Below, in pieces: positions 13,116-54,968 of a DNA stretch of 64,000 nucleotides (the first letter of the stretch is position 1; each line of letters opens with the position of its first letter). The notes under the pieces are model-generated. The model was not told where the DNA came from and ran no database searches. It worked only from the letters and a program-made list of their open reading frames with translations. The stretch spans positions 10,790,807 through 10,854,806 of the forward strand of contig JASFXZ010000003.1 in assembly GCA_032209605.1 (NCBI GenBank), given 5' to 3'. Position numbers and translations under genes: made by a program. Source of the DNA: Mactromeris polynyma. Lineage: Eukaryota; Mollusca; Bivalvia; Venerida; Mactridae.

Positions 13116-14500
13116 ATAAAAACGGAGATAACCGAATATCGCAGGAATGTAATGAAAAATACCGGAAAATACCGGATATAACTTATAATTGCCGGAATTT
13201 AACGGAGATTTCAGACTCGGCGTATCATGACGGACGTATCATGACCGTGCAACCATATACACGTATCATGCGGTATTCGTCTCTATAAGAAACGAAAAGA
13301 AATAAGTCTACAAAGGCACTGATAAGCTCGACGGGTGCTCCTTATACAATTAATATAAGGAAACAAACGGAGCAAGATCCGCGCGAAGCAGAAATGAGCA
13401 ATACGCTTCATTGATACGTGAACAAATACCCTAACACACATATACGATTGCTTAATAACTATATAATGGCTTTCACAGAAATAGATCTGACGTGCATTTC
13501 TATGTCTATAAATTTAAATAAGCATTAAAAGCAATAGCGTGTCTGAGAAAAGTTGTCGTTTGAATTAAACAACTTGGTTTTTTATATTGCGTTAAAATCT
13601 ACAGCTTAATGAAATAGATATTAGCAAAAGTATAATACATTGCATCTAAGTTCAGGATTTTACGTCTCTACATTTAATGTGTGTGCCCCGGGGGCATACG
13701 CAAACTACACAAAACCTTTCTCTCTCCTATAACAATACACGTAACATAAACGTAATGGAAATATATTTCAGTACAGTCCAATTGTTTTCAAGCTGTTTGT
13801 TACACAATCGTTATTCTGGCATATTTTCCCATTGCAAATATTCTCCCCAAATTTAATGGGCATTTTTCTAAAGCCAATATCAAAAAACAAAAGATGAACA
13901 AAAAAAGATTAACATCATGTTTTTATAATGCGTCATGATCTGAAACATTTTTTTCAACCAGTTTTGGCAAGCTATGTTGCTTAATAGTGTACATCTAATT
14001 AATATGCAGAAGTCTGGGGCGACACTGTAAACATTCATTGCCTACATCAACTGTGTGTTTTAGTCTTTTTAGTCTTTTATGACCCAATTAGCATATTTAA
14101 TTGGATTTAAGACCAACAGTCTATCATATACATCTTAGTTCAATCACTGAGACGAATACGACCAGTCCCTTAGACAAATGCATACAAACATACGAGCGTC
14201 AATGCTTTCAAATCTTCCTTCCCTATAGACTCCCACCCATGGTATCTTGAAAGTTTTTTCAAACAGGCTTATAACGTATACTACACTCACTAGATGATCA
14301 TAACCTGTTTTATCCAGATTTTATGCTTGATGTTACAATTTTATACTGCATTGTTTACGTCAAGTTGACGTCATTATGTCATAATTTTATACTTTTATCT
14401 TGCAATGACACGCACCTGCTATAAAACATCCGAAAGGGAAGTCAGGCCGTACAAACAGATATATAGATACAATGCATCGTGGTCTACTTCAAAACTAAAG
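13116..14500. other. Non-array interior of the 11-kb element, with a dispersed repeat
   Basis: From about 13215 to 14080 this resembles 49446-50060: both contain CGTATCATGACCGTGC, a run of C and G near CCCCGGGGGCAT or CCCCCGGGGCAT, and similar AT-rich text in the same order. A second older repeat is thus nested between the satellite and the right arm. No gene is seen. Confidence 0.6.
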
Positions 14501-15614: not shown

Positions 15615-15788
15615 AACCAGTACTAACTTACCCTTCCACAAGGAGCCGGCAACTTCTCCACATGAGGAGGAAAATCGACATTTTTTTGTCAAATTTTCAT
15701 GGAAGGGTATGACCTGACGCGACCGGGAATGGAACCCGGATCGCCGGGTTACAAGTCCAGCGCACTAACCACTGGACCACGACCGCGA
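15615..15788 (-). mobile_element. tRNA-derived SINE
   Basis: On the minus strand a tRNA-like head shows an A box (TGGTCCAGTGG) and a B box (GGTTCCATTCC), with TGT in the anticodon position. A non-tRNA body follows. The acceptor stem does not pair properly, so it is a SINE head and not a tRNA gene. Confidence 0.7.
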
Positions 15789-37100: not shown

Positions 37101-40100
37101 TACTTTATGTCTGGTATCTTCTTAAATGCTTACTGTAAAATTATTTACATGGATATATTAATTTGCTAATAGAGATTTTATGACCGGTGATGCTTATTTT
37201 CTTAATACAAAATCCTCTTAAATTATTATGTGTACATATGGTATAAAGTACGTTCCCCTGGCAACGTTTTACGCTAATTAACTTACAAAGGCTGAAAATC
37301 CGATTTCCCTCAATACTTCAACGATTTCTTTGTTATTCAGTGACAATCACACGATACTGAGCTAGACATTCTTGTCGTTATTGATTAATTTATACATAAT
37401 ACATGTATATCATATTAATGGTTTACAGGAAAACTATTGAAAACACAACGCCGGTTTGTTTTTAAAGAAACACGTCATATCGTATATACCAAATTTGATC
37501 TCCCTAATCATCTGTTTGGGCCTGGCCCCATGTTCACAAATAATTAGTTTTTAGGATCAGGATCAAGATTAGATATACTTTTTTGCAAATTTTGAAAAAT
37601 GTTGTAGGAAAAACTAAATGTTTTGATAGAATGTGATACAAATGGATATATGAATGTTTTGAACAACTTTTAAGACATTAAAGTTAGTTTTCTTGTTTAT
37701 TTAGAAAAGAGTTATGATTGGTAAGTTAAGACTGATTCTTGAAAATTGATCCTGATTTGACCTGTATCAAATTCAGTGATAAGTATAATTTATTATTTTC
37801 TCAACAAGTTTTAAGGGTTTTCACAATGTTTATTAGAAGATATTAGGTATTTTTGTGTTAGTATATGAAAAGTGCTTCCAGAAAAGGGAAAATATATTTC
37901 AGGATCAAATTGATCCAGATCAGTGGATCCTTTGTGAACACCGAGATTGTTACTCATAATTCTAAAAATTAAACAGTTCCTGAATGATTTTTCAGGGGAT
38001 ATTGAACGTTTCAAAGAGCATACTTTTTGCAACTTTGAATACCTCTTGGCAATGGCGGACGCTGATCACGTGCAAAAGGTCATGTATAACCTTGACCTTG
38101 TGAAATCATTCCTCGTTGATGAAGATATGCACGTCCTTGACCTTACCTTTAGGTCAGCGGGTGTTGCACTTCACACATCTCCACTACAGCTTGCTAATGA
38201 ACTGATCGGAAGATTGCGTCAACTCAAAGGTACGTTTGTACAAACCAATTAAAAGGACTACAGCCACGAAGGGTTAAATCTAGTGTAATACATCATAAAA
38301 AGGTAAGAGGTGGCAGTTCTGGGCACTTTCAAGCCTGTTTCTAGTTGTATGATATTTATCTTACCGAAAATTTATCACGAATATTAACTAGATAACTAGA
38401 TAATTATCGTAATAATTAAGATGGTTAAAACGAATTAATTCGCGAACGCTATCATGCTAGCTGGTGGCAGTAATATGCCACCATACACAAATCTACAATA
38501 TTTACCTCCCATGTTCTTTGTCATCAGCCATTTTGATAGGCAAAACTGATAAGCACTTACCAAATTAATTACCAAATATAAGATAATCGAGAAAATACCA
38601 ACTTCGGAGAACTTGCATGTGACAACCACATTTTCTTCAAATTTCTGAGACATCTGCCAACATGAGCATGATGAAAAAGTCATTTTATATACCTGATTCT
38701 ATTTTACTATCGTTTAAATTATATTCCCTATACTTTTTAAGGAAAATTGCCTATCAATATGGCCGACTATTCAGAACAAGGGAGGTAAATATTGTAGATG
38801 TATGAACTATCTATTTATAACAAGAAAACATTTGACGGTGATTGAATGTTTCTGTTTATATAATTTGTTTTGAAATCAAGAGTTCAGTAACTAATCAAAT
38901 CTTAATTCTGTATTGCCCATTGTATTTGTTTCCACAGTGATGCATTCATCAAACTCATTCCTCATCCATTTTCAGCCATATTTGTATCCTTAAAGTAAGT
39001 TCACAAAAAACAAAATGGCGTCGTGTACATCGATTGGATCACTAAACAAATAAGTTACAATAAAGTTGAAATGATGATAACATGATTATGGCATTTTCTT
39101 TGTAGATTATTTTCCTCGGTATATCGAATCGTTTGTGACTCAGTGCATGGAGTGGTGTGATAATTATACTCTTCCGCTGTTGGTTCCCTTGACCACGTGG
39201 TTAGATAATGTACACACCCCCTCCGTGACAACCATGAGATATGATCAGCCAATCACGTGTGCAGCCGTAATGCCAAACACTCAACATGTGCTAGTGGCTT
39301 CCGAAAATGCTATTTTTATGTTTCACATAGCAACAAGACGCCAGGTCAAATCATTCAAAGGTAATGCACCTATCTAGGTTGTTTCCCATCCAATGGGAGT
39401 GGCGGGCACACCGAGGGAACTACTTATTACAAACTGCAAACTTGTTTGTCTAAATTCCACCCATTGAGCAGGAAGTTTTGTCAAGCCTCATTTCGGTGTT
39501 CTGTACCAATCGGAACACCTCATAGATATAAATAACCTCGGAGATATTATGGTTAGAAAGTAGTCCGCAAGATGGCCGCCTCCGAGATATGTTGTACCTG
39601 TCTATTATGGAATCGAGACATATACGATATTTCTGGGAAACCAACATCAAATAAATTTGGAACGACAAATAAATATATCCCTGATAATGAAATAACATCA
39701 ATTTGTAGGAATTGTTGGCGAAAAATATTTTTTTTTATGCATTCAGAAGGTAATCTCGTGATTATCTACTCGGCGTTATTCGCCGGGGACACATCACATT
39801 GGGTGTATCCATCCACTTACTTACGAGGTATGTATTCCGAGCTCTGCCGGATACCGCCGAGTAGTTACGATTGGTTCTGTACATCAAAATACAGTAAACC
39901 CTCCATGATAAGACCACCTTTGGGGCCCTTGAAAACAGAACTGGTTTTTTATTGAGGTGGCCATAATATTGAGGTTGAATAATGAGCAAAACAGTGAAAA
40001 TGGACTTGAAAATTGTGTTCTTAATTTTGAGGTGATCTTTGAGTGATATTTTACTGTATCCTGCAGAAAATTCCGCTCAATTTTATTTCCTGAATGGCGA

Positions 40101-43100
40101 TCTCACTAGGTCAGTCAAAAATCACACATTTCGGGATTCATCCTCTGTTTAAAGACCCCTATATTTCGCAGCCCCCTTTCCGGTTGGGACAAAGTATGGA
40201 CATGCGCATAAATGTATAGTATGGTTTGTTGAAATATACAAAAAAAAATATGATTGTCAAACTCAAATGTCGTGTTCAGTTGGTTGAAGTTGATATAAAG
40301 TTGGGTTTTATAAAAAAAGCATTTATATGTATATGTTTTACGTCATAAATCTTAGGGAGATTTGATAATACAAGTTCTGAATAATATGAAGTTTTTACAC
40401 AAACGTTTCAATTTCACGTTATGTCTTTTACCCAATACTTCAGAGTACCTAACAACATTGTACGCTCGCAATTGTTAACAACGTCTCGGAAAAATATATG
40501 CAAAATACCTTCAATTTTGATGAACCGAATTCCCGACCAAAATAATCTCTCAAACATTCAGTAACATTAGACCCACTCGCACCTATAGACGAGAAACATA
40601 ATTTATCTCCGTCTCAAAAAAAACAAAAAAAAAACATTCAGTAATTGTTTTCAGGTCACGTTGGACAAGTGACTTGCATTTTTCTAGAGACGAAATCTCG
40701 CATTATGATATCAGGGGCTAAGGACAAGACAGTTCGTGTCTGGGCTCTGGATTCCGAGGACTGCATAAATGTACTCAAGTATGTTCCTTTCATTAGCAAT
40801 TTTCTACGTGATATGTTTTATAAATTTGGATGGTGCACGAAAAATTCGAGCTATGTTTAATACCTGGGAACGTACCCGGGCAGTTTTATACACTACGTGT
40901 GTCCTTGTGTAAAACTTCCATTTGAGCGCCACTGTACGATTTCAAACGTCTTCCGCAAGTGACGTCATTTCAAGAAAACGCAACATGTGATGTCACTATT
41001 TGCAAGCAGGAAACTATATTTACTTCATATGGTCACTTCGTTTTCAAATTGCCATATGGGGCAAATATTGCCTACTGTCAGTGGCCTACATGGTGACGTC
41101 ACATGTGACGTTTCTCTGGAAATTACGTTTACTTGAAGAAGAGGTTGGAAATCGTGCAGGCGCTCATTTGTATAAATAAATTAAAAATGGACAAAGTGTG
41201 ATATTGTTTACATCATTTTGGCAGAAGCAAATGTCTCGTAATAGTGACGATACTTTTTAATGAAAGAGGACGTGATGGCAATGTCGAATCTGAAGTTACT
41301 TGATAAATAAACAAAATTGTTCACCTTTTCCGAGAGTTTTATGCTTTTGTCACGTACATCGTATGTTTGCCACTTTTTCAGGGAGTTTAAGGCGTTTGTC
41401 ACGTGTATCGTTTTTTTGCCACTTTTCAGAGAGTTTAAGGCCTATGTCACGTGTATCGTATTTTTGCCACTTTTTCAGAGAGTTTAAGGCGTTTGTCACG
41501 TACATCGTATGTTTGCCACTTTTTCAGGGAGTTTAAGGCGTTTGTCACGTGTATCGTACTTTTGCCACTTTTTCAGAGAGTTTAAGGCGTTTGTCACGTG
41601 TATCGTATGTTTGCAACAAGAGTATGTTGTGTGTGGAACAAACGATGGCTCTATTGTTGTCAGGGAACTAGAAGATGGAGATGATATAAAGACACTCTCA
41701 ATGCATAAAAAACGAGTAACTTCTCTGCGTTTATGCAAATCGAATTCAATATTATTGACCAGTAAGGGCATTCTATCATTATGTTTACCATTACCATTTA
41801 CTCTTTTTCTGAATTTTTAAGGACTGATTTATATCTTTTTTCCAATTAAATACATGTACATGTATTTTTTTCGATTTGATGAACGTCATATTTTGAACGA
41901 ATTTGTGATGAGCTGCGTCAGTTCGTGACTTGGAATGGCCAACCGTTTATTTAACATCGATTGGGTCTCGAACTCGCGTTTGTGAGGACACAGACGCTTG
42001 GCCGCTGTACCTCCAGTAATCTTTATTTTCAGATTTATCGATTTAAAATGTTTTGAAACAAATGCTACAATTCAAAAAGACGAAGTAATTTATGCAATTG
42101 AGAATACAGTCGGACCCCGTTTATTCGACAACCGTCTATCCGAATACTTGTCAACATCCGAAATAAATTGCAGGCGCCGATGTATATTCTTTTCACGTCG
42201 AAACAAACTGGACTATTCGAAACCATGTATTATTCGAAATAAATTTCGGACACGATGACTTCGAATGAACGAGGTCCGACTGTATATTATGTTAATAAAA
42301 TGAATTGCCAAAATATACCATCATTTAGTTTAAATGGATTTTGACCTAACATTTCAGGCTCGTTGGATTGTAAGATAATTCTGTGGTATACTAAGGATTG
42401 GTCGCACATGAGTATCATAGATGTGGAGTCACTCAGTCCAATACTATGTATCGATGTGTCAGCAGATAGCACCTTTCTTGTGGCAGGTAAACACGTCTGT
42501 CTATATAACGTGACTTTTCCCCACCTTTTCCTATTTTAATTATCACCTGGATGGTACTAAAACAGTCAACCGTAAGGTTATTTACGGGTAACTTCAGAAA
42601 AAAGAACGTTAACAAGTACAATGTACTTATATGAATTCAGAATCAAAAGTTCAGTAAAACCTCACCTAAAAATACACATCAGTAAAAATTAACTTTGTTG
42701 CCGATAAAAGATAAAAGCAGCACCCTTCACTGTAACGCAAAGTTTGACGCTACTTTGATTGGATTTATTATGTCATTTACATCACTAAGGACCAATCGGA
42801 AAACAACTATTTTATGGGTATTATTACTAATTTACGACATCATTTATTGATACAATAATTAGCAAAGTGAGAATCCACATTATGATGCAAACCAACCGAG
42901 ATTATGCTGCATGTATCATTACGCATGCGCAAACCAACCGAGACTATGCCAGCATGTATCATTACGCATGCGCAAAGAATCATCATGTCGCAATTCACTC
43001 TTAATAACTAATGTGTAGCCTTATGGACAGATGATTGCAAGTTATACGTCATTTGTGTTGAATGTTCATTTTCTCATCATTGCAACCTAGAAATGAAGAG

Positions 43101-46100
43101 TAAACAAACATTAAAGGCCAATTTGGAAGTACAAATGTATGGCAAAATTAATGTGATCATTTCAAATGCATTCCAGGCTGTGATAATAGTTATATGCACG
43201 TAATTGCCATGGCAACGGGGACAATTGCGCAGACGATACAAGGACATAAAGGGAACGTGAGTAGAATAAGTGTGAACATTATAAATGAACTAATTGCGTA
43301 GGTGAGCATCGTTTTATTAAAGATCGTTACGTATATAACTTTATGTACGTTATACCAGATTATTCTATTCGGTACATAAATATCTGCTTCTTATGGAATC
43401 ATGGCCAAGGTCGTCTGGTTATATGTTTATATTCACGCATAGCTTAAAACGTTACTTACTTATTATTGTTTAAACATCGTAAAAGTGTGTGACTGTATGT
43501 TTTTTAAGACGTTTATGTTGTAGACAAAATGGTTATATACTTGATTCTTTCAAAGTCGTCTGACAAAAACGTCGAAATGTTATATTGCTCTGCAGGGAAG
43601 AATTAACATTACAATAAACGGACCAATGTTTTAAATTTTAAGCAAAGCAAGCCTTATGTTTCGGAACTATGTTTGTGGGTTTTTGTCAAGGAAGAACTAA
43701 GTTGTTTCAATGAAAAGCACATTAACAAGACAATGCCTCCCAATACAAATCTCAAGGAAACATCGGCATACGAAACATTAGGAGTTATGGAGGCGGTAAT
43801 ATATACATGGGAATGGGGTAATAAGGAATTGTCTGGCAGATTTCCAAAACAACCAAGGAGAATAGGAGGAGACAACACGGTTGGGGGAGAATGGTTGGAA
43901 TGGTGGGAATACATTACAGAACAAGCTACGAGAGCATGTTGGTCACCAACAGATAACTTGGAATTGATTGTAGCGATGAGATTACAGTCATGCTGAATAT
44001 TTACTTATTCTTGGTTTTAGATAAACTGCGTTTCAATATGTAGTGACTGTCATCATTGCATTGCCGCGTCGTCTAGTGGTGAAGTCTATCTCTATAATTT
44101 CCGAGCAACCGAAGTTCTAGAAATCTTCAAAGGTCACAGTTCAGAAGTACTTTGCACTATGTTACCATCCAACGAACAAATGGCGGTTACTGCATCAAAG
44201 GTATGTAAAGCCATAAAATTGCCCTTTATATCGAAACTGAAAGCTAATGTTTCAACTGTCAAACATACTGCGAATCGGCGAGTTCAGATGTTTAGCGAGC
44301 AGAAATTGTTGCGAAACGGCGAAATCCATATTGTTAAATTGGATAGCAAAGTATACAAGAAATTACTTCTGTGAACGAGGAATGATACGTTGGCTTAATT
44401 TTTTGATATTTTCTTGAATTTAGTAAACTCTTCCACGTTAAACTAGTTAAATAATGGTTATCATGTGTCTATCCGCCTGATGCCTGACATTAAAGGATAG
44501 GAATCGGGAAGTAAATTTGCTCAGACAGTAGGCGTCTCATAAGTCAGAAATGTCTGCCCTTTAAAGTAGGGATGACACTATAATAAATAAACACTTTACT
44601 TTTACTTTTATACAATATTCAATAAATATCAAAAGTGTAACGTTCGTCTAATTAGAAGTCTGGTTAAAAACTGTTTACTGTGTTTCAGCACGAGATATGT
44701 GTGTGGAGTATGATGAAAAAGTTCAGCGGGGAATCACAGTATCAGGTTACACATAGTGGACCAGTCAACTGTCTAGCTCTCACACCAGACTCGAAGAAAC
44801 TAGTGTCTGGTATTGTGTTTAATACTACATGTACCTTTAAACAGTCATCACCCGATCATAGCAAATATATCAAATGTTTTAAGTTTAACAGAAGATGTTT
44901 TTTTAACCATTAACGTCCTGTCTGAACTTCAAGCTTACCATTCTTTCAGAGAATAAATTGTAATTCCTATCATTAAGTCCCTGATCAAAGCCTTTTTGAA
45001 AGTTTTAATTATCAGTTATAATGAAACCATCTTTACACCAAAGCAATATTTTATTGATTATAATTACAGGCAGCCATGATGGGTTGTTAAAAACTTGGAA
45101 TCTGGACATAAGCGATTTCGGCGAGAATTTCGTTGGACATAAAGGAGCGGTCACGTGTCTTGATTCAGCCAATGACAATTCATTTGTAGTTTCTGGTTCT
45201 GCTGACTGCACATTGAAAGTATGGAGCATCACTATTGCTTCTGTTATCACCCACTATAGGGTAAGTTTATACATGTAATCACCCTCTATAGGGTAACTTT
45301 ATTCATGTTATCACCCTCTATAGGGTAACTTTGTTCATGTTATCACCCTCTATAGGGTAAGTTTATTCATGTTATCACCAACTATAGGGTAACTTTATAC
45401 ATGTTATCACCCTCTATAGGGTAACTTTGTTCATGTTATCACCCTCTATAGGGTAACTTTATTCATGTTATCACCCTATATAGGGTAACTTTGTTCATGT
45501 TATCACCCTATATAGGGTAACTTTGTTCATGTTATCACCCTCTATAGGGTAACTTTATTCATGTCATCGCCCACTATAGGGTAACTTTGTTCATGTTATC
45601 ACCCTCTATAGGGTATCTTTGTTCATGTTATCACCTACTATAGGGTAACTTTGTTCATGTTATCAGCCTCTATAGGGTAACTTTGTTCATGTTATCACCT
45701 TCATTAGGGTAACTTTGTTCATGTTATCACCCTCTATAGGGTAACTTTGTTCATATTATCACCCTCTATAGTGTAACTTTGTTCGTGTTATCACCCTCTA
45801 TAGGGTAACTTTGTTCATGTTATCACCCACTATATGGTAACTTTGTTCATGTTATCACCCTCTATAGGGTATCTTTGTTCATGTTATCACCTACTATATG
45901 GTAACTTTGTTCATGTTATCACCCTCTATAGGGTAACTTTGTTCATGTTATCACCCTCTATAGGGTAACTTTGTTCATGTTATCACCCTCTATAGGGTAA
46001 CTTTGTTCATGTTATCACCCTCTATAGGGTAACTTTGTTCATGTTATCACCCTCTATAGGGTAACTTTGTTCATGTTATCACCCTCTATAGGGTAACTTT

Positions 46101-49100
46101 GTTCATGTTATCACCCTCTATAGGGTAACTTTGTTCATGTTATCACCCTCTATAGGGTAACTTTGTTCATGTTATCACCCTCTATAAGGTAACTTTGTTC
46201 ATGTTATCACCCTCTATAGGGTAACTTTGTTCATGTTATCACCCTCTATAGGGTAACTTTGTTCATGTTGTCAGCCTCTGTAGGGTAACTTTGTTCATGT
46301 TATCACCCTCTATAGGGTAACTTTGTTCATGTTGTCAGCCTCTGTAGGGTAACTTTGTTCATGTTATCACCCTCTGTAGGGTAGCTTTGTTCATGTTATC
46401 ACCCTCTATAGGGTAACTTTGTTCATGTTATCACCCTCTATAGGGTAACTTTGTTCATGTTATCACCCTCTATAGGGTAACTTTGTTCATGTTATCACCC
46501 TCTATAGGGTAACTTTGTTCATGTTATCACCCTCTATAGGGTAACTTTGTTCATGTTGTCAGCCTCTGTAGGGTAACTTTGTTCATGTTATCACCCACTG
46601 TAGGGTAACTTTGTTCATGTTGTCAGCCTCTGTAGGGTAACTTTGTTCATGTTATCAGCCTCTGTAGGGTAACTTTGTTCATGTTGTCACCCTCTATAGG
46701 GTAACTTTGTTCATGTTGTCAGCCTCTGTAGGGTAACTTTGTTCATGTTATCACCCACTGTAGGGTAACTTTGTTCATGTTGTCAGCCTCTGTAGGGTAA
46801 CTTTGTTCATGTTATCAGCCTCTATAGGGTAACTTTGTTCATGTTGTCAGCCTCTGTAGGGTAACTTTGTTCATGTTATCACCCACTGTAGGGTAACTTT
46901 GTTCATGTTGTCAGCCTCTGTAGGGTAACTTTGTTCATGTTATCACCCACTGTAGGGTAACTTTGTTCATGTTGTCAGCCTCTGTAGGGTAACTTTGTTC
47001 ATGTTATCACCCACGGTAGGGTAACTTTGTTCATGTTGTCAGCCTCTGTAGGGTAACTTTGTTCATGTTATCAGCCTCTGTAGGGTAACTTTGTTCATGT
47101 TGTCACCCTCTATAGGGTAACTTTGTTCATGTTATCACCCTCTTTAGGGTAACTTTGTTCATGTTATCACCCTCTTTAGGGTAACTTTGTTCATGTTGTC
47201 AGCCTCTGTAGGGTAACTTTGTTCATGTTATCAGCCTCTGTAGGGTAACTTTGTTCATGTTATCACCCACTGTAGGGTAACTTTGTTCATGTTGTCAGCC
47301 TCTGTAGGGTAACTTTGTTCATGTTATCACCCACTGTAAGGTAACTTTGTTCATGTTATCACCCACTGTAAGGTAACTTTGTTCATGTTATCACCCTCTA
47401 TAGGGTAACTTTGTTGATGTTGTCAGCCTCTGTAGGGTAACTTTGTTCATGTTATCACCCTCTATAGGGTAACTTTGTTCATGTTATCAGCCTCTGTAAG
47501 GTAACTTTGTTCATGTTATCACCCTCTATAGGGTAACTTTGTTCATGTTGTCAGCCTCTGTAAGGTAACTTTGTTCATGTTATCACCCTCTATAGGGTAA
47601 CTTTGTTCATGTTGTCAGCCTCTGTAGGGTAACTTTGTTCATGTTATCACCCACTGTAAGGTTTTAGTGTCATTTTGAATGCATCGTTTCATAGAAATTC
47701 GGACTCAACACTGAACATGAACATTCTGTCGTAATTTGTTTATATTTCCAAATTGTATGATGCTATGTTAATGAAATTGTGGTGAATCATCAATGAGTAA
47801 TTGAATTGCAGGGGCATGACCAAGTGGTTAGTGGTGTACATGTGCTATCAGACAACCATTTAGTGCTCTCTCTGGATATATCGCAGAAAATACACATGTG
47901 GCGAGCAGAGGACGGACAGACAATGAGATTGTACGCTGGACCAACCCAGCTACATACAATAGCACCGAATAGTCAACACTGTATCTCAGGTGCAGGTGAT
48001 AACAGGTTAGTTCATTGATTTCCCCTGATTTAAGTTCGAACATTAAATGTATCGGTCTGGATCAAAGTTGACGTTAACTTTGAACAACATACACAAGTAA
48101 TATCTTTCAAAAAAGATGGTTGGTGCAATCTGATTGAAGCAAATTGTTGCAATCTGGAGGTTAAGATTTGTTGTGCAACATAAATGAAAACGAAACAAAC
48201 CAAGACAAAAAATTGTCAAAGCTCATTTTTTGTTTACTTGTTAACGAAATCTGTGTTACGAATACAACTATACATGTAGTTGAATTAGTTGATATACAGA
48301 ATGATAGTGGTCCCCTTATGTTGGGGAGTTGAACAGCGGAGATTATCTTACATATACACTGTTCATTTCTGTTTAGTGATTGTAATTGCAGTAGCTATAT
48401 TATCCCATTAACCATCAAACAACTGCTTAGCAATGTGTTTCTACAAAGTCAACACAGTGTATAAGTAAATGTCATTACTCTTCATGGGAAGATCAATTCG
48501 AATACCAAACAGTTCTTCCTAATAATGTCAATGTATCACTTTGATTCTACACAATCTATGTAAGCACTCCCAGTACTTTGATTCTATACTATCTTTGGTG
48601 GAGGATCAATCCGTAGATATCGCATTCGGGCACTTCCGACATTGTTCGGGTTAGCCTTCGTGCGTTTCCGGCAATTTCCGTATACAAATAGTGAACAAAC
48701 AGCATTTCCTTTTAAAAATATTAGTATACGTTAACATTTACCCACCACCTCCCCTGGAAGCACTTAATATATAAATTTCCTTAATTAATTTAAACAGGTT
48801 TTTTAAAATTTGCATATATTAAAGGGAGGTAATTCAACAAACTGGTGCAGTCTGGGTGTTTATTAAATTGGAATATTTCCGTCCTGATTGTCGGAAATAA
48901 CTTTTTTATTCTGATAACAGTATGATACTAAATGGAATGCAAATCATGACACGCTCCCTGACTGATTTCGTCTTTATATAAAACTTACTTCATAGAAATA
49001 AAAATGGATTTTCAGGAACCTATCTAGAGTTCAAAACTTAAGAGTCGTGGAGAAATTTAAGTTAGAATACAACCTACATTTTCAGCCAATGAAATGACAG

Positions 49101-52100
49101 AACGGCTCCCGTTAAGTACTACGCTTATTCATTATGAATTTCGACTTTTCGCGGGCTTTTTAAGCTCCGCCTACTGCGAATATGTGTGTGAGCGTTACCA
49201 TATTTGGAAAATTAATGCGTATCGGTCAATCAAAATGTAGGTTACATTCTAAGTCAGTTAGTAGATTTTAAGTAAAATCTTATTGGTTAAGAAGAGGGCT
49301 CGCTCGCTACGCCCCTTCTTAATCAATAAGATTTTACTTAAAATCTACTAACTATTACTTATATTGTTTAAATCAACAATAATTGTATATAAAATATTAT
49401 ATAAGATTTCATTAATGCTACAATACTTGGGGAAAACAGACAAGGAGCGTATCATGACCGTGCGACCACATACACGCATCATGCAGTTTGTTCGTCTCTA
49501 ACACGAGACAAACATAAATAATGCATAAAGACAACACAACAAAACCCTGACAAGGTCAACGGCTACCCCTTCTTATCTAGGAGGGAAGAAGGGGTATAGG
49601 GAAACAACCGTCGACCAAGCCAAGTGCTAAGCTGAATGCGCTCTACGCTGGACTATACAGTCATTTAATGAAATATAAACTGACACCTTATATACAACTG
49701 CTAAATAACTTGTGAACGACTTTGATTTGCCAATTAATCATTGAGTTTTATGTTCAGAAATTTCAGTTTAGAACTGTTTACGATGTATTTTGACAGAAAG
49801 CTTACGCGTTCATTTAACAACATATTTTCCAAGTTTCGTGACAACTGGCCATGAAATTAAATGGTTACAAGCAAAATTATCATATATAAGTTTGTATTTT
49901 TTCCTCCCCTAGTAAAAATTAGTACCCCCGGGGCATATTACGCAAATGATACGTAGCTATGTATTAGAGCAATCCTGTTCACACCCTTATATAACTAACG
50001 GTATTTATACATGTCTTGTTACCAGCGATAACGTCATGACATAAGAAAGATGAGGAAGAAATATCTTGAATAAAGATGGTCGGTATGTTTCAACATAGTA
50101 CATCAGTACTGATCGTATCAGTTGTGAAATCACACATTCATGTTAATAAATTTGTGACATATCTATTTATCTTATAAAAACAATACAAATTTGTACATAA
50201 AACCTAGCATCTTCTTAGTTGTTAATGCATGGAACAACACACATCCAAATTATTTGTGCTGGTTGACTTGAATAGGGAAGCTTAGTCAAACGGGCCCGTT
50301 AAAATATGTTTTGAGTCTTGTCTGTTGTTGTTTTACTATCTAACTGTGTAACAATATAAATTGGATCAATTGTTTCTAACATTTATAACTTTTGAAAACA
50401 TTTTTTTTAACATCTAAAACTTACGAATGTGTGAAGAGTCGCTATGAGGTTTGCGTATTGCAATATTTGGTTTTTGTTCATTTGTCCATAAATGTTACAA
50501 ACTTTGAAAATGTTACAATGTGATGTTTTCTTTTTTGTTGTCAAGGTTGCAAATATGGAAGTTGGCGGACGGATCGGTATTGAAAGAAGTGACGCACAGT
50601 GAAAGAATCACATGTCTAAAATGTTCACGTGATAGTCAGTACCTAGTCACTGGTTCCCAGGATAAATCGGTGAAGGTTTGGGAGATAGACACTGGTAAAA
50701 TTGTGCAAGTGAGTAGATAAATGCCACATACAGTGTATCCTCTCCAAAGTGGCCCTCTCTTTAGCAACCACCTCTCTTCAATGACAGGACATGTATCGTG
50801 TTGTACTGTTGTAAGAATTAACTAACAATTTAAGCCCTTTTATCAACAGCCAAAACTTTGCATCTACTAATGGGTGTTGCCCTGAAGAGATTGCACTGCA
50901 TTATAAGACATGTGGCTATAAGTATGATCAAACAAAACAAAGGATGTTTCGATGCATTCTAGACGGAAATAAATATATGATGTTGCGATTTTTTCTCCCT
51001 ATTTTCGGAAGTTGATGACTGTTTGATGGTGGCAATTGCCTCCCTTGGCTATTTCATAATGCAAGCACATTCAATTTGAATTACAATGACACGGGTAATA
51101 ATTTATGTTTTGAAAGAAAGAACAAATTGAATTTTGAAACTTTGAAGTAGATTGGTGCTCGAAATTTGCGTCTGTACTTTATTTATATATAATTGTGTAC
51201 ATGTATTATGGTGATTATTGGTTGCACTTAAAGTGTTTTGACGATCAGTTTGGACTCACACTTCATTGTCCTGTTCTCTTGTGATATATATTAGGTGATA
51301 GTACAATGTGTATACGTTTCATCTATGTTCTACCTGTCTGATCTCAATACTATTCAATAATTGTTTGAGATATTAGAGATTAGTAGTAGCTTATTGCTTT
51401 CCATGTCATCGATCTATATGTCAATGCTAGCCAAATTTCCCTGAATCTGAGATGCAAGGTGTTTAGACAGTAAAACCTCACCTACCGACCATTTAACAAA
51501 TAAGACCACCTCAATATCAAGAACACAATTTACAAGTCCATTTTCAATGTTTTGATTTGTATTCAACCTCAATATTAAGACCACTTCAATAAGAAGACCC
51601 GTTTTAAAGGTCCCAATGGTGGTCGTATCATTGAGGTTTACTGTAACTATATCGTTACAGAAAAAAGTAACACATTTGCTGATATTTCTATAAAATGTTA
51701 TCATATTTCAGATTATAGTTGATCAGAGTTCCACCGTTAATTCTCTGGAGATAACCTTGGACAATGAGACCATATTGTCTGCTGGAACAGACGGTATCAT
51801 TCATGTTTGTAGTCTCAACTTGGGTGTCATTGAGAAGAAACTGAATGGTCATTTTGATACAGTTACGTGTTTAAATCTCTCAGCAGACGATAGTATATTA
51901 GTATCAGGTAAGCAATATGTATACAGTTACGTGTTTGAATCTCTCAACAGACGTAGTATATTAGTAGCAGGTAAGCAATATGTATACAGTTACGTGTTTA
52001 AATCTCTCAGCAGACGATAGTATATTAGTATCAGGTAAGCAATATGTATACAGTTACGTGTTTAAATCTCTCAGCAGACGATAGTATCAGGTAAGCAATA

Positions 52101-54968
52101 TGTATACAGTTACGTGTTTAAATCTCTCAGCAGACGAAAGTATCAGGTAAGCAATATGTATACAGTTACGTGTTTAAATCTCTCAGCAGACGATAGTATC
52201 AGGTAAGCAATATGTATACAGTTATGTGTTTAAATCTCTCAGCAGACGATAGTATATTAGGATCAGGTAAGCAATATGTATACAGTTACGTGTTTAAATC
52301 TCTCAGCAGACGATAGTATCAGGTAAGCAATATGTATACAGTTACGTGTTTAAATCTCTCAGCAGACGATAGTATATTAGTATCAGGTAAGCAATATGTA
52401 TACAGGTATGTGTTTAAATCTCTCAGCAGACGATAGTATATTAGTATCAGGTAAGCAATATGTATACAGTTACGTGTTTAAATCTCTCAGCAGACGATAG
52501 TATATTAGTATCAGGTAAGCAATATGTATACAGTGCGACCTCTCCAGAGCCACACCCATTGGGAGACACAAATTTTGGACGTTAATTAGAGATTGATGCT
52601 CTTGAAAGATTAAATTGATTGTAAATTCTTACTGCAGGAAAAAAAGGATACTGTTGTTGAAGAGAGGGAGTCGCTCAAGAGAATGTTGCTGTAGAGTGAT
52701 TACACTGTATTTACATGAATTGTCTGAAAAAATAAAATGAGATCTCACTTTTTATGATATATTTTATCAATAATATGTGTCTTGAAATGTATAATAATGC
52801 TTAGCGATCTGTTATTTATTTGCACGTTCTATTGTGATGCTGGTTTAGACATATCTAAATACTTAATCAAACATTTACACTTAAAGATTTATAAATGACA
52901 GTCATCTCTGAGTGTATTTGTATATGTATCGATATAAAACATAGAATCTAATAGTAATCATATCCGGGTATGCCACTAAGTCTAAAGTGTATGATAGAAT
53001 GAATGTATGAAGCATGGTTTGTGATCTAGTTATGTACGTGACAAACTTTGAAGAATATTAGTGTCGTTGATACAGGTTGCCTTGACAACACGATTAGAGT
53101 TTGGAACTATAGACGTGGTACACAGATCACTATGTTTGATACCCACCACCCAGTCCTTGGCATTGTCATGACCGAGACTGCAAACAGGATCGGCGTCCGG
53201 CTCGGTAACAACAATAACGTCCCTATACTCTGCCTCCATAATTCTCCCGCCAAACTAAAGGAAGCCAACCTAGCGGAAATGACGTATTCAGCATCTTCCA
53301 TCCGGGGTTTTTCTATGGGCGGGACAACTGCTCGTTCTAACGATAGCCAAGCTGATCTGTCTGGTTTGTATATTTACTCTTTGATGCAGATGTACTAAAG
53401 ATACTTTTTGCAGTTTGATTGACATAGATGCGCGAACAAATCAAATCTCAAATTATATGTCATATACAATGTATGCAACCACGCAGCATTTGTAATCTAG
53501 ATGCGGATTGGTTTAGATTGTATAAAATGAGTCAATAAGATAATACTAGTGCTTTTTCAAGTTTTGCAGTCATTTAATCCCAAGTTTAATGAAACAGAAA
53601 AAAACACATCCATCATGGAGGCATGTCCGTTTGTTTTCAAATTACACTATAAATTTATTATTTAACAATTGCATGCAGTTTCTATGATAACTTTCTAACA
53701 CAAAATGGTCTCGTTTTACATCTTTGGTTTAGGTTACAAACAATCAATGTTACAGAATATATGTCGGTGTCTAGCATAGTGGTTCATGCTATTAACAGGC
53801 TTAGAGTTACACTGGAACAAATGTCAAAATGTCTTCACGTCCCGAAAATAGCCTAATCCAAGAAATCGTAGTATCATTTTTCAGTCAAGAATATCCCCGA
53901 ACGCCCTCTAGTGCTGTTAGAGTGTAGCCCTAGTGACATGTCTGGATACAACCTTTCATGTGTCTATTTATTTATAGATTTCAGTAGCGAGGAGGGACAT
54001 ACATTGCCCATAAAACCAAAACAAGTACACCGATCTAGAGTCCCAGTGACGTGTTATTCTACGTCACATCGACGGAGACATTCGTCTGTATCAAGTGTGC
54101 CTCAAATTATACAGGTATAATTATATTGCTTGTACAACTTTTCATATGTTTCATGAGTACCTAACTTATAGTGTTAATTTCCATTACTATACTTACGAGG
54201 AATGTATTCTTGATCAGCCAGATGGCGTATTTATGGATATTACATACTTTATTGACTTGTTTCGTATTCCATCTATTAAACGTCTCCCCTTGTTGTCCAT
54301 CTAAATTCTCCTTAGTTGTGTTTTTGGTCGGCCAGCCCATTCATTGCACCCCTATTTCCATACATGTTTACCGTTGCACCGATCGGTGCCTTATGTTTTG
54401 TAGCCTGTTGTTTTCCCGGTAGTATGTGTGAGGAGGCATTGTCGTGTGTGTGCGGCGTTCTCTGTAACAACATAATTTCTCTTTTATTAGCTGCAGGGTT
54501 AAACCGAGTACAGAACTGACATTATTTTGAACCTACCTAGGTTACTTCTAGCTCGTTACTCAGGTCAGCTGAAAGCTGTAGGCCTACATAACTGGAATAC
54601 TGTTGAAAAACAGCACAAAAAGCAGTACCAAATACATTATATGCTCTATCATATCTTTATATACAATGTATACGCTAATTGTAAATTTTAACTTGAAGTC
54701 TTACATGACACAAATTGTCTTTCTCTGATACCATTGCTTAAGTCTGTCTTTAAGAGATAGAACACTTTTAATATAACAGCTTCGGTCAAAACTGATAAGA
54801 TGTTTTGATTCATTGCAGCATTCCCCCATACGAGCACCAATACAGTCGACAGTCAAAGCACAAGAAAATCGCCGTATGAAGTTCCCTCTCCCACGAAACC
54901 TAACCAAACCAAAAGCAAAAGCAGAATGTGTTGAGACAAAACGATCATATGTTTGCATAGTGCTGTGA
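22069..54968 (+). CDS. NWD1-like: NWD1-like NACHT and WD-repeat protein, complete, 23 coding exons
   Basis: This is a STAND-type NTPase with C-terminal beta-propellers. Coding exons: 22069-22174, 25406-25608, 26629-26728, 27446-27533, 29707-29828, 30264-30338, 33220-34605, 35262-35567, 37996-38229, 39106-39360, 40655-40778, 41577-41761, 42358-42486, 43177-43256, 44021-44200, 44689-44809, 45070-45260, 47812-48005, 50546-50708, 51712-51907, 53076-53363, 53978-54114, 54819-54968. All introns are GT-AG, every phase matches, and the sum is 5013 nt (1670 residues). Order: NWD N-terminal domain (about 30-165); NACHT with Walker A GSEGSGKSS (388-396) and Walker B LLIFIDG (476-482); winged-helix/helical linker (about 590-900) with LVPLTTWL as in NWD1; 14 WD blades (about 920-1530), hence two propellers; basic tail ending CIVL. 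The start ATG was chosen because MIDPGDF then LPPNVVKIF fits the usual NWD opening. The human protein is reported as a cytosolic, stress- and hormone-linked scaffold; function here is inferred from family only. Confidence 0.9.
22371..22630. mobile_element. Inverted-terminus element in NWD1-like intron 1
   Basis: TGCCTCGGTCACAT at the left and ATGTGACCTAGCCA at the right are near-perfect inverted copies. The interior is GC-richer than the surroundings (CGTGCGGAC repeated). Confidence 0.55.
24195..25085. repeat. 29-30 bp minisatellite, about 30 copies, intron 1
   Basis: Unit: CATAATACAGTGCTCGATTC plus AGACCATTT; variants swap CTCGATTC, CACGATTC and CTCGAGTC. The array runs directly into a family-D foldback element whose terminus, ACAGTGC, is part of every unit. 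Confidence 0.95.
25085..25290. mobile_element. Family-D foldback element, degenerate
   Basis: Starts ACAGTGCAAACATCTCCAAA, carries GAGCAACAAC, and ends with the inverted phrase GTTGCTCTGAAGATGTTGC. It abuts the minisatellite on its left. Confidence 0.55.
25406..25608 (+). CDS. NWD1-like: NWD1-like exon 2: N-terminal domain
   Basis: Acceptor TATTTCAG, donor GTAAGT. Encodes MERKYIWHEVLPDLQ and YGVNVLFVDM, equivalent to the conserved ER...VYPKL...GLEFQVVD of the family. The usual RWG after VD is missing, which marks a divergent copy. Confidence 0.9.
26250..26510. repeat. Dispersed repeat, inverted copy of 19335-19610
   Basis: AATACATTAGACTAATC, ATATTTGCAATCATTGAACA and GTCAATGGCAACAT are reverse complements of phrases in the earlier copy. 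Confidence 0.75.
26629..26728 (+). CDS. NWD1-like: NWD1-like exon 3
   Basis: Acceptor TTTTGCAG, donor GTAAGC. GFLGDKYGDVPLP is the family's GLLGxKYG motif, followed by an acidic helix (ISEQEFTLLLEAGKK). Confidence 0.92.
26927..27020. repeat. Family-D foldback fragment
   Basis: ACAACTGTCTGAGTCCATCC, then CTCTCTAGAGCGCTCC and GAGCAACAACCTCTCTTCAG. Only one arm is recognisable. Confidence 0.4.
27446..27533 (+). CDS. NWD1-like: NWD1-like exon 4
   Basis: Acceptor TTTCTGTAG, donor GTAAAT. Encodes FDLLSSSYRLDENSIPPSYI, matching the family's W/Y..DENxxPPxYxL motif that closes the N-terminal domain. Confidence 0.92.
27797..27880 (+). mobile_element. Degenerate tRNA-derived SINE head
   Basis: ATGAATAGAGCGCCTGACTC and a B-box-like GGATTCGTAACCC look like a decayed tRNA-derived SINE head. 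It sits just upstream of the 26-bp array. Confidence 0.45.
27905..28870. repeat. 26-bp minisatellite, about 36 copies, intron 4
   Basis: Unit AACAGTATATAGACTTACAT plus TACATA, with 25-bp units (TAACAG for TAAACAG) and variants GTGTCTAGAC and ATCATATAGAC. Looser copies trail to about 29110. Confidence 0.93.
29404..29525. repeat. 61-bp tandem duplication
   Basis: GGTCTGCTATTGCTACAT through GCGCATCGAACACATGT occurs twice in direct order at about 29405 and 29468, with few differences. Confidence 0.85.
29707..29828 (+). CDS. NWD1-like: NWD1-like exon 5
   Basis: Acceptor AATTTCAG, donor GTAAGG. Encodes RYNELLTIIQASAILCDSQS, a helical segment equivalent to the family's region of paired helices between the N-terminal domain and NACHT. 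Confidence 0.85.
29869..30040. mobile_element. Foldback element, family A, degenerate
   Basis: CTCCGTAATAAGACCCAC at the left and TTGAGGTGATATTTAAGTG then TTTTACTGTA at the right fit family A, with an eroded left end. Confidence 0.55.
30264..30338 (+). CDS. NWD1-like: NWD1-like exon 6
   Basis: Acceptor TTTTTTTCAG, donor GTAATT. Encodes LERQIKQALWLSSQDSLFLF; in the family this corresponds to the short helix before ...CLAYIRxI. Confidence 0.8.
30339..33219. other. Intron 6, no gene seen
   Basis: 2.9 kb. The only strong structure is the hairpin at 31369-31445. Weakly related phrases near 30955-31210 and 32855-33000 (AATTTTGACTTGTCCGACAT against AATTTTGACATGTCCGACAT) indicate another dispersed repeat present twice. 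Confidence 0.55.
31369..31445. repeat. Near-perfect hairpin, arms of about 36 bp
   Basis: GATAGAAATCGACTTATAA continuing to AAATTATAAGAGGT is followed, after a few bases, by its reverse complement ending CGATTTCTATC. One extra C is the only interruption seen. Confidence 0.9.
33220..34605 (+). CDS. NWD1-like: NWD1-like exon 7: NACHT domain
   Basis: A single 1386-nt exon codes residues 232-693. Acceptor ATTTTTCAG, donor GTATGT. It opens with a Lys-rich linker, then a helical region (TLVHLHRCADLYRDNTVTG), then NACHT: Walker A GSEGSGKSS, sensor-like VFVGLTAKSSSAEDI, Walker B LLIFIDG, RLPPKFHVTITCSS, and the NACHT-associated winged helix IALSRYGLSEVEVLDVMS. The exon carrying most of the NTPase without introns contrasts with the finely split WD region. 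Walker A, Walker B and the post-Walker PPK..ITCSS segment appear intact, so nucleotide binding is plausible. Confidence 0.95.
35262..35567 (+). CDS. NWD1-like: NWD1-like exon 8: winged-helix end and linker
   Basis: Acceptor ATTCTTAG, donor GTGCGT. GNKTLLMWRNKRI matches the family's DGxTLLxWYHRQ motif, and LANLFLEQW then NLRKLHELWFHLLKSG follow as in NWD1. It joins exon 7 directly to read HELG-TLLSRRYIGN. Confidence 0.92.
35587..35930 (+). repeat. Dispersed repeat, copy 2 of the 330-bp family
   Basis: Begins 20 bp after the exon 8 donor. See 18926-19260 for the shared phrases. Confidence 0.8.
36354..36430. repeat. 38-bp tandem duplication
   Basis: ATAATTATTTTAAACCGTAA to AGAATATATTTCTA occurs twice with one base changed. 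Confidence 0.85.
37531..37941. mobile_element. Foldback element with GTTCACAAA termini
   Basis: TGTTCACAAATAATTAGT and AGGATCAGGATCAAGATT on the left are mirrored by GATCAAATTGATCC and GGATCCTTTGTGAACA on the right. The right end is 55 bp before exon 9. Confidence 0.7.
37996..38229 (+). CDS. NWD1-like: NWD1-like exon 9: helical linker
   Basis: Acceptor TTTTTCAG, donor GTACGT. Encodes FEYLLAMADADHVQKVMYNL and SPLQLANELIGRLRQL, the helical repeats that precede the propellers in NWD1. Confidence 0.9.
38481..38815. mobile_element. Foldback element, family C, uninterrupted copy
   Basis: Left arm: ACAAATCTACAATATTTACC and CAGCCATTTTGATAGGCAAA. Right arm: TTGCCTATCAATATGGCCGA, AGAACAAGGGAGGTAAATAT and TGAACTATCTAT. 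It contains about 150 bp of extra central sequence relative to 3978-4169 and serves as reference for the split copy. Confidence 0.8.
39106..39360 (+). CDS. NWD1-like: NWD1-like exon 10: end of linker and first WD blade
   Basis: Acceptor CTTTGTAG, donor GTAATG. Contains LPLLVPLTTWLDN, recognisable in NWD1 proteins, then the first blade (ITCAAVMPNTQHVLVAS, IFMFHIATRR). Confidence 0.92.
39891..40057. mobile_element. Foldback element, family A
   Basis: ACAGTAAACCCTCCATGATA ... TTGAGTGATATTTTACTGT. The interior has CCTTTGGGGCCCTTGAAAAC and GAGGTTGAATAATGAGCAAA as in the other copies. Confidence 0.8.
40655..40778 (+). CDS. NWD1-like: NWD1-like exon 11: WD blade
   Basis: Acceptor TTTTCAG, donor GTATGT. 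GHVGQVTCIF, SGAKDKTVRVWALDS is a canonical blade. It ends in phase 2 (AA), which decides the reading of the repeated acceptor downstream. Confidence 0.95.
40915..41178. mobile_element. Foldback element in intron 11
   Basis: TTTGAGCGCC and ACGATTTCAAACGTCTTC on the left, then GTTGGAAATCGTGCAGGCGC on the right, plus inner arms with TGACGTCA-like words and GCCATATGGGGCAAATATTG at the centre. Confidence 0.6.
41331..41618 (+). repeat. 49-bp minisatellite spanning a 3' splice site, 6 units
   Basis: Each unit consists of an intron end (CACTTTTTCAG) and the first 38 nt of exon 12 (GAGTTTAAGGCGTTTGTCAC ...). Acceptor AGs lie at 41381, 41429, 41478, 41527 and 41576 (spacing 48, 49, 49, 49). A diverged first unit ends CCGAG near 41334. 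The last unit continues into the true exon. Confidence 0.95.
41577..41761 (+). CDS. NWD1-like: NWD1-like exon 12: WD blade
   Basis: It starts after the last of five repeated acceptors; AA from exon 11 plus A gives Lys, then EFKAFVTCIVCL. Using the acceptor at 41429, the only other frame-preserving one, meets TAA after about 19 codons. YVVCGTNDGSIVVRELEDG is a blade with R-E in place of W-D. Donor GTAAGG. Confidence 0.9.
41958..42016 (-). mobile_element. tRNA-derived SINE head, degenerate
   Basis: Minus strand: GGTACAGCGGCCAAGCG (A-box-like) and GAGTTCGAGACCC (B box). No full cloverleaf. Confidence 0.55.
42105..42285. mobile_element. Foldback element, family B
   Basis: TACAGTCGGACCCCGTTTAT ... 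AACGAGGTCCGACTGTA with inverted arms of TTCGAAATAA-type text. It ends 72 bp before exon 13. Confidence 0.88.
42358..42486 (+). CDS. NWD1-like: NWD1-like exon 13: WD blade
   Basis: Acceptor ATTTCAG, donor GTAAAC. SLDCKIILWYTKDWS, then ILCIDVSADSTFLVAG. Confidence 0.93.
42887..42975. repeat. 45-bp tandem duplication
   Basis: GCAAACCAACCGAGATTATG to ATCATTACGCATGC twice in direct order. Confidence 0.8.
43177..43256 (+). CDS. NWD1-like: NWD1-like exon 14: WD blade
   Basis: Acceptor TTCCAG, donor GTGAGT, ends in phase 0. CDNSYMHVIAMATG, then IQGHKGN. Confidence 0.9.
44021..44200 (+). CDS. NWD1-like: NWD1-like exon 15: WD blade
   Basis: Acceptor TTGGTTTTAG, donor GTATGT. SSSGEVYLYNFRATE, FKGHSSEVLC; 60 codons. 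Confidence 0.93.
44689..44809 (+). CDS. NWD1-like: NWD1-like exon 16: WD blade
   Basis: Acceptor GTGTTTCAG, donor GTATTG. EICVWSMMKKF, then VNCLALTPDSKKLVSG. Confidence 0.93.
45070..45260 (+). CDS. NWD1-like: NWD1-like exon 17: two WD blades, ends at a repeated donor
   Basis: Acceptor AATTACAG. SHDGLLKTWNLD, GHKGAVTCLD and SGSADCTLKVWSIT are textbook blades. The exon ends ACCCACTATAGG before GTAAGT. Its last 17 nt and this donor are the seed of the 2.4-kb array that follows. Reading past the first donor gives VSLYM and then a stop, so only the first donor is productive. Confidence 0.95.
45236..47659 (+). repeat. 32-bp minisatellite spanning a 5' splice site, about 75 copies
   Basis: Unit: TTATCACCCTCTATAGG (exon 17 end) and GTAACTTTGTTCATG (intron start). 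The first copy keeps the functional GTAAGT; later copies read GTAACT. Between about 46540 and 47300 two variants (TTGTCAGCCTCTGTAGG and TTATCACCCACTGTAGG) alternate, giving 64-bp dimers. The last copy decays at CTGTAAGGTTTTAG. Confidence 0.97.
47812..48005 (+). CDS. NWD1-like: NWD1-like exon 18: WD blade
   Basis: Acceptor TTGCAG, donor GTTAGT. GHDQVVSGVHVLSDN, ISQKIHMWRAEDGQ and CISGAGDN; phase 0 in, phase 2 out. Confidence 0.93.
48944..49457. mobile_element. Inverted-terminus element in intron 18
   Basis: TCATGACACGCTCCCTGACT at the left is mirrored by CAAGGAGCGTATCATGA at the right. It encloses the hairpin at 49257-49352. Confidence 0.6.
49257..49352. repeat. Hairpin with arms of about 42 bp
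   Basis: GTTAGTAGATTTTAAGTAAA ... GAAGAGGGC and its reverse complement GCCCCTTCTTAATC ... CTACTAAC, around a short loop CTCGCTCGCTAC. Confidence 0.9.
49446..50060. repeat. Dispersed repeat shared with 13215-14080
   Basis: CGTATCATGACCGTGCGACC, GGGAAACAACCG and CCCCCGGGGCATATTACGCA parallel phrases inside the 11-kb element in the same order. Confidence 0.6.
50546..50708 (+). CDS. NWD1-like: NWD1-like exon 19: WD blades
   Basis: Acceptor GTCAAG (no pyrimidine directly before AG), donor GTGAGT. LQIWKLADGS, ITCLKCSRDSQYLVTGSQD and VKVWEIDTG. Confidence 0.93.
50730..50912. mobile_element. Foldback element, family D
   Basis: ACAGTGTATCCTCTCCAAAG ... GTTGCCCTGAAGAGATTGCA; it begins 21 bp after the exon 19 donor. 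Confidence 0.65.
51467..51645. mobile_element. Foldback element, family A
   Basis: ACAGTAAAACCTCACCTACC ... CATTGAGGTTTACTGTA; ends 66 bp before exon 20. Confidence 0.82.
51712..51907 (+). CDS. NWD1-like: NWD1-like exon 20: WD blade, ends at a repeated donor
   Basis: Acceptor CATATTTCAG. ILSAGTDGIIHVCSLNLG, then GHFDTVTCLNLSADDSILVSG. The 3' end (ACAGTTACGTG ... AGTATCAG) with donor GTAAGC is repeated downstream. Confidence 0.95.
51858..52535 (+). repeat. 64/56-bp minisatellite spanning a 5' splice site, 11 donors
   Basis: Each unit has the last ~48 nt of exon 20 and GTAAGCAATATGTAT of the intron. CAG/GTAAGC donors begin at 51908, 51971, 52035, 52091, 52147, 52203, 52267, 52323, 52387, 52451 and 52515. 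Spacing is 63 or 64, or 56 where 8 nt (TATTAGTA) are lost. The array ends exactly where a family-D foldback element begins. Confidence 0.97.
52530..52712. mobile_element. Foldback element, family D
   Basis: ACAGTGCGACCTCTCCAGAG ... GTTGCTGTAGAGTGATTACACTGTA. Its first bases, ATACAG, are shared with the minisatellite unit to its left. Confidence 0.7.
53076..53363 (+). CDS. NWD1-like: NWD1-like exon 21: last WD blade
   Basis: Acceptor GATACAG, donor GTTTGT. CLDNTIRVWNYRRG closes the second propeller. A Ser/Thr-rich stretch (SASSIRGFSMGGTTARSNDS) follows and is probably unstructured. Confidence 0.9.
53978..54114 (+). CDS. NWD1-like: NWD1-like exon 22: tail
   Basis: Acceptor TTTATAG, donor GTATAA. 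Basic, Ser-rich tail (SRVPVTCYSTSHRRRHSS). If the donor is not used, translation would stop after one more residue (Val, then TAA), giving a shorter form without the CaaX-like end. Confidence 0.75.
54819..54968 (+). CDS. NWD1-like: NWD1-like exon 23: basic C-terminus with CaaX-like box
   Basis: Acceptor CATTGCAG; stop TGA 54966-54968. Encodes 49 residues with a Lys/Arg-rich stretch (NLTKPKAKAECVETKRSY) and the end VCIVL. As I recall, vertebrate NWD1 ends similarly in VCLIV, which supports this terminal exon. Confidence 0.75.
   Translation, partial: HSPIRAPIQSTVKAQENRRMKFPLPRNLTKPKAKAECVETKRSYVCIVL

What the first reader, a model, noticed from the sequence alone, without database searches (positions are those of the whole stretch)
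41331..52535. Three minisatellites in one gene, each straddling a different splice junction
In the NWD1-like gene, tandem arrays at 41331-41618, 45236-47659 and 51858-52535 each have a unit made of exon end plus intron end. Two copy a 5' splice site and one a 3' splice site. Units differ in length (49, 32, 64/56 bp) and sequence, so these are three independent events. Splice junctions (AG/GT words) may act as repeated sites of local duplication, or selection may tolerate such duplications because one intact site always remains. This is related to proposed intron gain by tandem duplication of AGGT, but I know of no description of serial junction-seeded minisatellites.
Basis: partly seen in the sequence, partly recalled or inferred. 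Interest (0 to 1): 0.9.

Follow-up and report, generated by a model that had tools for sequence, protein, structure and literature searches.

The report
Minisatellites spanning splice junctions ("mirages")
Three short DNA repeats in one animal gene each copy an exon-intron border many times over, a curiosity already described as "mirages" in amphioxus; in almost every case only the copy next to the exon could give a full-length protein.

Summary
Three minisatellites in an NWD1-like gene span splice junctions: 49 bp x6 (3' site), 32 bp x75 (5'), 64/63/56 bp x11 (5'). A 17-exon model with consistent phases, and WD40 profiles covering all three joins, support the borders. Placed at random, 0.26-0.47 of the gene's five arrays should span a junction; three do (P 0.001-0.007, post hoc). 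The kind is known: "mirages" in amphioxus genes (passages read). Of 22 further array loci read in this genome, two are clear new cases, in a C1q-domain gene and an animal haem peroxidase. Seeding by AG/GT words is weakly indicated at best: a strict donor word is about twofold over-represented in arrays, but only 2 of 11 such loci read were recognisable coding junctions. Best reading: ordinary minisatellite formation in a repeat-rich genome, tolerated at junctions because the exon-proximal site stays intact; nearly every other copy would truncate the protein. No RNA data were available, and no tool named the species.

The parts
33220..54970 (+). C-terminal 17 exons of an NWD1-like gene (P-loop region, NWD1 winged helix, WD40 propellers); further N-terminal exons upstream were seen by eye but not modelled
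   Evidence: 17 exons phase-consistent, 1438 aa before one stop; PF25469 and WD40 families, PDB propellers
40655..40778 (+). exon upstream of array A (phase 2 out)
41322..41614 (+). Array A: 49-bp unit x6 (one copy 48 bp) = intron end + exon start; in-frame acceptor in the last copy (41576|41577)
   Evidence: 5 of 5 other acceptor copies give a premature stop
41577..41761 (+). exon starting inside the last copy of array A
45070..45260 (+). exon ending inside the first copy of array B
45242..47652 (+). Array B: 32-bp unit, 75 full copies = exon end + intron start; in-frame donor in copy 1 (45260|45261, GTAAGT); 73 of the 74 other full copies lack the +5 G
47812..48005 (+). exon joined to 45070-45260 across array B
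51712..51907 (+). exon ending inside the first copy of array C
51857..52534 (+). Array C: 64/63/56-bp unit x11 = exon end + intron start; in-frame donor in copy 1 (51907|51908); 11 of 11 copies keep CAG|GTAAGC
   Evidence: copy 2 would add 63 nt in frame, copies 3-11 give a premature stop
53076..53363 (+). exon joined to 51712-51907 across array C

Best explanation
These are junction-spanning minisatellites of the mirage kind. In a genome very rich in minisatellites, local tandem duplication and later unequal exchange or slippage sometimes take a segment that covers a splice junction (inferred). Such arrays survive because the copy that touches the exon keeps its splice site and frame, while the other copies lie in the intron and are removed with it. 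In the five arrays modelled here (three in the window, one C1q, one peroxidase) the exon-proximal site leaves an intact frame and the tested alternatives do not, except copy 2 of array C (shown in sequence). That this site is the one chosen, by exon definition, is inferred; there is no RNA evidence. In array B nearly all decoy donors have lost the +5 G, which would weaken them; in array C and in the C1q array they have not. No special seeding by the splice signal is needed.
For: Arrays and junctions. Frames: 5 of 5 (A), 75 of 75 (B) and 9 of 10 (C) alternatives truncate. C1q: 12 of 12 decoy donors stop at aa 53, while the first donor is open for 88 aa, up to the stop that ends the next exon's own open frame (that exon's donor was not mapped); peroxidase: 16 of 16 decoys that match the donor word stop at aa 52-54, while the first donor is open over all that was joined. 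Array B decoys: 73 of 74 lack the +5 G. Repeat-rich genome: 101 merged arrays of 15-200 bp period total 59,537 bases in 200,000 (20 tiles near one end of contig C223), and 17 total 14,196 in the 64,000 of the window. Same structure in two more genes: C1q (PF00386 E 2.9e-12 across the join) and animal haem peroxidase (PF03098 E 2.3e-24 across the join). Known precedent (passages).
Against: Three junction arrays in one gene exceed random placement (P 0.001-0.007, post hoc), and the donor word is over-represented in tandem arrays, so a bias towards junction or donor-like sequence is not excluded. Array C decoys all remain strong donors, which is odd if decoys cost fitness. There is no RNA evidence of which copy is spliced.
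Confidence: 0.72

Rival explanations
1. Splice junctions (AG/GT words) seed local tandem duplication, so arrays arise there more often than elsewhere.
For: 3 of 5 gene arrays on junctions, 0.26-0.47 expected. Strict donor word in tandem triples: 536 matches against 199 for the reversed word, 282 for a scrambled word that also begins CAGG and 233 for its reverse, with a single-word ratio of only 1.25. Up to C46:1.11 Mb in the listing order there are 20 donor loci (13 unit families by eye) against 2 and 6 control loci.
Against: Only 2 of 11 strict-donor loci read, 0 of 5 further loose-donor loci and 0 of 6 acceptor-word loci lie on a recognisable coding junction. These are lower bounds: the loci were judged by eye from open frames, the negative ones were not scanned with Pfam, and non-coding exons would be missed. 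The share 2 of 11 is about the share of single CAGGTAAGT words in excess over the reversed word, (8476-6760)/8476 = 20%, so true donors look no more array-prone than other copies of the word; the interval for 2 of 11 is wide, 2-52%. The loose donor word gives only 5582 against 3862. Junctions lie inside the units. All match counts are clumped, many per array.
Confidence: 0.14
2. The repeated splice sites have a function: alternative exon lengths, or intron gain in progress as proposed for amphioxus mirages.
For: Array C copy 2 would add 63 nt, 21 codons, in frame. In each C unit GTAAGCAATATGT is followed by ATACAG, a possible acceptor. Array C decoys are all CAG|GTAAGC.
Against: The other alternatives tested truncate. 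The GT-to-AG distance inside a C unit is 19 nt, too short for an intron by general knowledge, and no pyrimidine tract is seen. Apart from one 63-bp copy, the units (49, 32, 64, 56 bp) are not multiples of three.
Confidence: 0.08
3. Artefact: wrong exon borders, or arrays collapsed or expanded in assembly.
For: No RNA; long arrays are easily mis-sized.
Against: 17 phase-consistent exons and conserved domains across the joins; the same structure in two unrelated genes. Copy number may still be wrong.
Confidence: 0.04

Closest known systems
Amphioxus mirages (Adh3 of B. floridae and B. lanceolatum; globin genes BflGb6 and BflGb9; TnC; PGBD5)
   Same: Tandem repeat units span an exon-intron border; both 5' and 3' borders occur; many, not all, copies carry AG/GT signals (PMC3087553 and PMC3902484, passages read)
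   Different: Another genome of 793 Mb, species not named by any tool; three arrays in one gene, one of 75 copies. Described units are 10-72 bp (Adh3), 60 and 108 bp (PGBD5) and 150-160 bp (globins)
Intron gain by tandem genomic duplication of AGGT-containing exon segments
   Same: Tandem duplication copies splice signals (PMC3443670, passages read)
   Different: Here existing introns are lengthened; no new intron is evident in the gene model
Internal tandem repeats modifying human genes in segmental duplications
   Same: Minisatellites with units of about 30 bp can lie at an exon-intron boundary (PMC2812944, outline, one section and passages read)
   Different: That work concerns recent human paralogs and reports novel introns and changed proteins

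Membership tests
Mirage minisatellites (amphioxus) | repeat unit spans an exon-intron boundary | tested here: met
   three arrays in the window plus C1q and peroxidase arrays
Mirage minisatellites (amphioxus) | many, not all, copies carry AG/GT splice signals | tested here: met
   array C 11 of 11 copies CAG|GTAAGC; array B 75 of 75 full copies keep GT, 2 of them GTAAGT
Mirage minisatellites (amphioxus) | regular splicing is not disturbed | not testable with these tools
   no RNA data; the exon-proximal route is intact in sequence
Mirage minisatellites (amphioxus) | length and somatic instability | not testable with these tools
   one assembly only
Mirage minisatellites (amphioxus) | occurrence in a cephalochordate (all described cases that I saw) | not tested
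   species not named by any tool; 793 Mb is larger than amphioxus genomes as I recall them
Intron gain by tandem AGGT duplication | a new intron between duplicated AGGT sites | tested here: not met
   no extra intron is needed in the gene model

The most novel reading that the evidence does not exclude
Donor-like words are preferred starting points of minisatellites in this genome, so splice junctions are recurrently copied into arrays, giving genes a renewable supply of decoy and potential new splice sites outside cephalochordates.
Probability: 0.15. Interest if true: 0.75.

Novelty: new member of a known kind. Interest (0 to 1): 0.4.

Why it matters
Mirages were described in amphioxus. Another repeat-rich genome with five cases, from one window and 22 further array loci, suggests that they may be a general by-product of high minisatellite load, and it offers natural arrays of up to 75 competing splice sites in which splice-site choice can be tested directly.

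Tried and rejected
Hairpin-driven expansion: unit folding was unremarkable as RNA (z -1.0 to 1.2, 6 units) and notable as DNA only for the array B consensus (z -2.65, 1 of 5 units); rejected as a general cause.

Donor words in the consensus units of 101 arrays from 20 tiles: 0 units with the loose donor word and 0 with its reverse; too small a sample, and the tiles come from 0.1-1.06 Mb of one contig and may not be typical.

Acceptor-word arrays: 174 matches against 74 control; 6 loci read, 0 at a clear coding exon. Only the flank after the last exact acceptor word was judged; in L040 and L045 the array runs on past it.

Loci picked for reading. Loose donor: the 6 loci in the first places listed. 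Strict donor: 20 loci appear in the first 100 of 536 places; 10 were fetched and one of the loose set (C1:4336912, L026) is also strict, so 11 of 20 were read. Left out: seven loci of one dispersed family (TGTACCAAC), the second copy of the C35 32-bp unit, and C2:19225010; a relative of the TGTACCAAC family was read as L024. L030 and L035 were unclear and are counted as not on a junction. Acceptor: 6 of 13 listed loci read; left out were five of one repeat family (TTTTTTACAGGTCCAAAA), C258 and C267.

Not obtained: species, RNA support, paralogues, homologous proteins, further control words CAGTGAAGT and AAGTCAGGT and the word AAGGTAAGT (not completed), and a whole-genome annotated junction scan.

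Full report
Observation. The three arrays are real and their sequences were read. I built a gene model from open frames and GT/AG borders; one missing 80-nt exon at 43177-43256 was found by a phase-constrained search. The 17 exons join in consistent phases to 1438 aa before one stop. Pfam finds WD40 repeats and the NWD1 winged helix (PF25469, E 9.3e-20), and WD40 profile stretches cover all three joins. A PDB propeller aligns with no gap at joins B and C.

Anatomy. Array A duplicates intron end plus exon start, and the last copy carries the in-frame acceptor. Arrays B and C duplicate exon end plus intron start, and the first copy carries the in-frame donor. The junction lies inside the unit (position 11 of 49, 19 of 32, 51 of 64). 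Array C is flanked by the short repeat ATACAGT. So the unit edges do not coincide with the splice signal. Switching to another copy truncates the protein in 5 of 5 (A), 75 of 75 (B, including the partial last copy) and 9 of 10 (C) cases; C copy 2 would add 63 nt in frame. In B, 73 of 74 decoy full copies lack the +5 G that the first copy has, copy 4 being the exception; in C 10 of 10 decoys keep CAG|GTAAGC.

Chance. Five arrays lie in the modelled gene (the second TRF row of array C was merged). Thrown at random as single units on the collapsed gene with 33 junctions, 0.26-0.47 should span a junction; three do (P 0.001-0.007 over six rules; window-wide with 18 unit lengths P 0.003). A Poisson version gives 0.003. 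The test is post hoc, on one gene.

Genome. The window lies in a 793-Mb assembly of 299 contigs. Merged arrays of 15-200 bp period total 30% of twenty 10-kb tiles near one end of contig C223 and 22% of the window. Arrays with three exact copies of CAGGTAAGT give 536 matches against 199 for the reversed word; CAGGATAGT gives 282 and its reverse 233. The single word is 8476 against 6760 reversed. The looser MAGGTRAG gives 5582 against 3862. Up to C46:1.11 Mb in the listing I count 20 donor loci (13 unit families by eye) against 2 and 6. Of 11 strict-donor loci read, two are clear coding junctions: L034, a C1q-domain gene, 49 bp x13, and L033, an animal haem peroxidase, 35 bp x30. The C1q exon alone scored below Pfam's cut-off (16.6 bits, E 0.0097); joined to the next exon it passes (47.4 bits, E 2.9e-12). 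In both genes the first donor joins to the next conserved exon in frame and the decoys tested do not (12 of 12 and 16 of 16). Five further loci with the looser donor word and six with acceptor words gave none. These readings are by eye on short flanks, so the positives are a lower bound. Mirages therefore recur in this genome, but most donor-like arrays that I read are not at recognisable coding junctions.

Comparison. [quoted passage not shown] PMC3902484 adds PGBD5 and mentions TnC (passage). The finding is therefore a new member of a known kind. For molluscs, one search returned 0 papers and one search listed 2 (seen as a listing only, titles on other subjects); the exact phrase returned 0. 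This covers the held library only; the primary Adh paper was not found under the identifier I tried.

Judgement.

Noticed in passing
window 5470-13123: 60-bp satellite-like array of about 128 copies with a 239-bp higher period.
   Followed up: no
L033 and L039 (C35:16898800-16903400): The peroxidase intron holds a second tandem array besides the junction array, and more repeats follow the next exon.
   Followed up: no
L026 (C1:4336912-4338759): 35-bp x55 array whose unit holds both CAGGTAAGT and TGCTTGCAG or TGCTTGTAG, as if made of tiny introns; no coding exon recognised.
   Followed up: partly
G000 C1, C2, C13, C24: Dispersed minisatellite family with unit TGTACCAACATCAGGTAAG at seven of the 20 listed loci, so some donor-word arrays are copies of one element.
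   Followed up: partly
window 39911, 51503, 58527 and near 62570; also L029: Repeated short element with AAGACCACCTCAATA-like words, perhaps a MITE; seen by eye.
   Followed up: no
window 54819-54970: The NWD1-like protein ends in CIVL, a CaaX-like motif (motif recalled).
   Followed up: no
window 61400-63760: Minus-strand exons that look like a mitochondrial carrier, judged by eye only.
   Followed up: no
window 15718-15786: Weak Rfam tRNA match on the minus strand (29.6 bits, cut-off 29), not found by ARAGORN.
   Followed up: no
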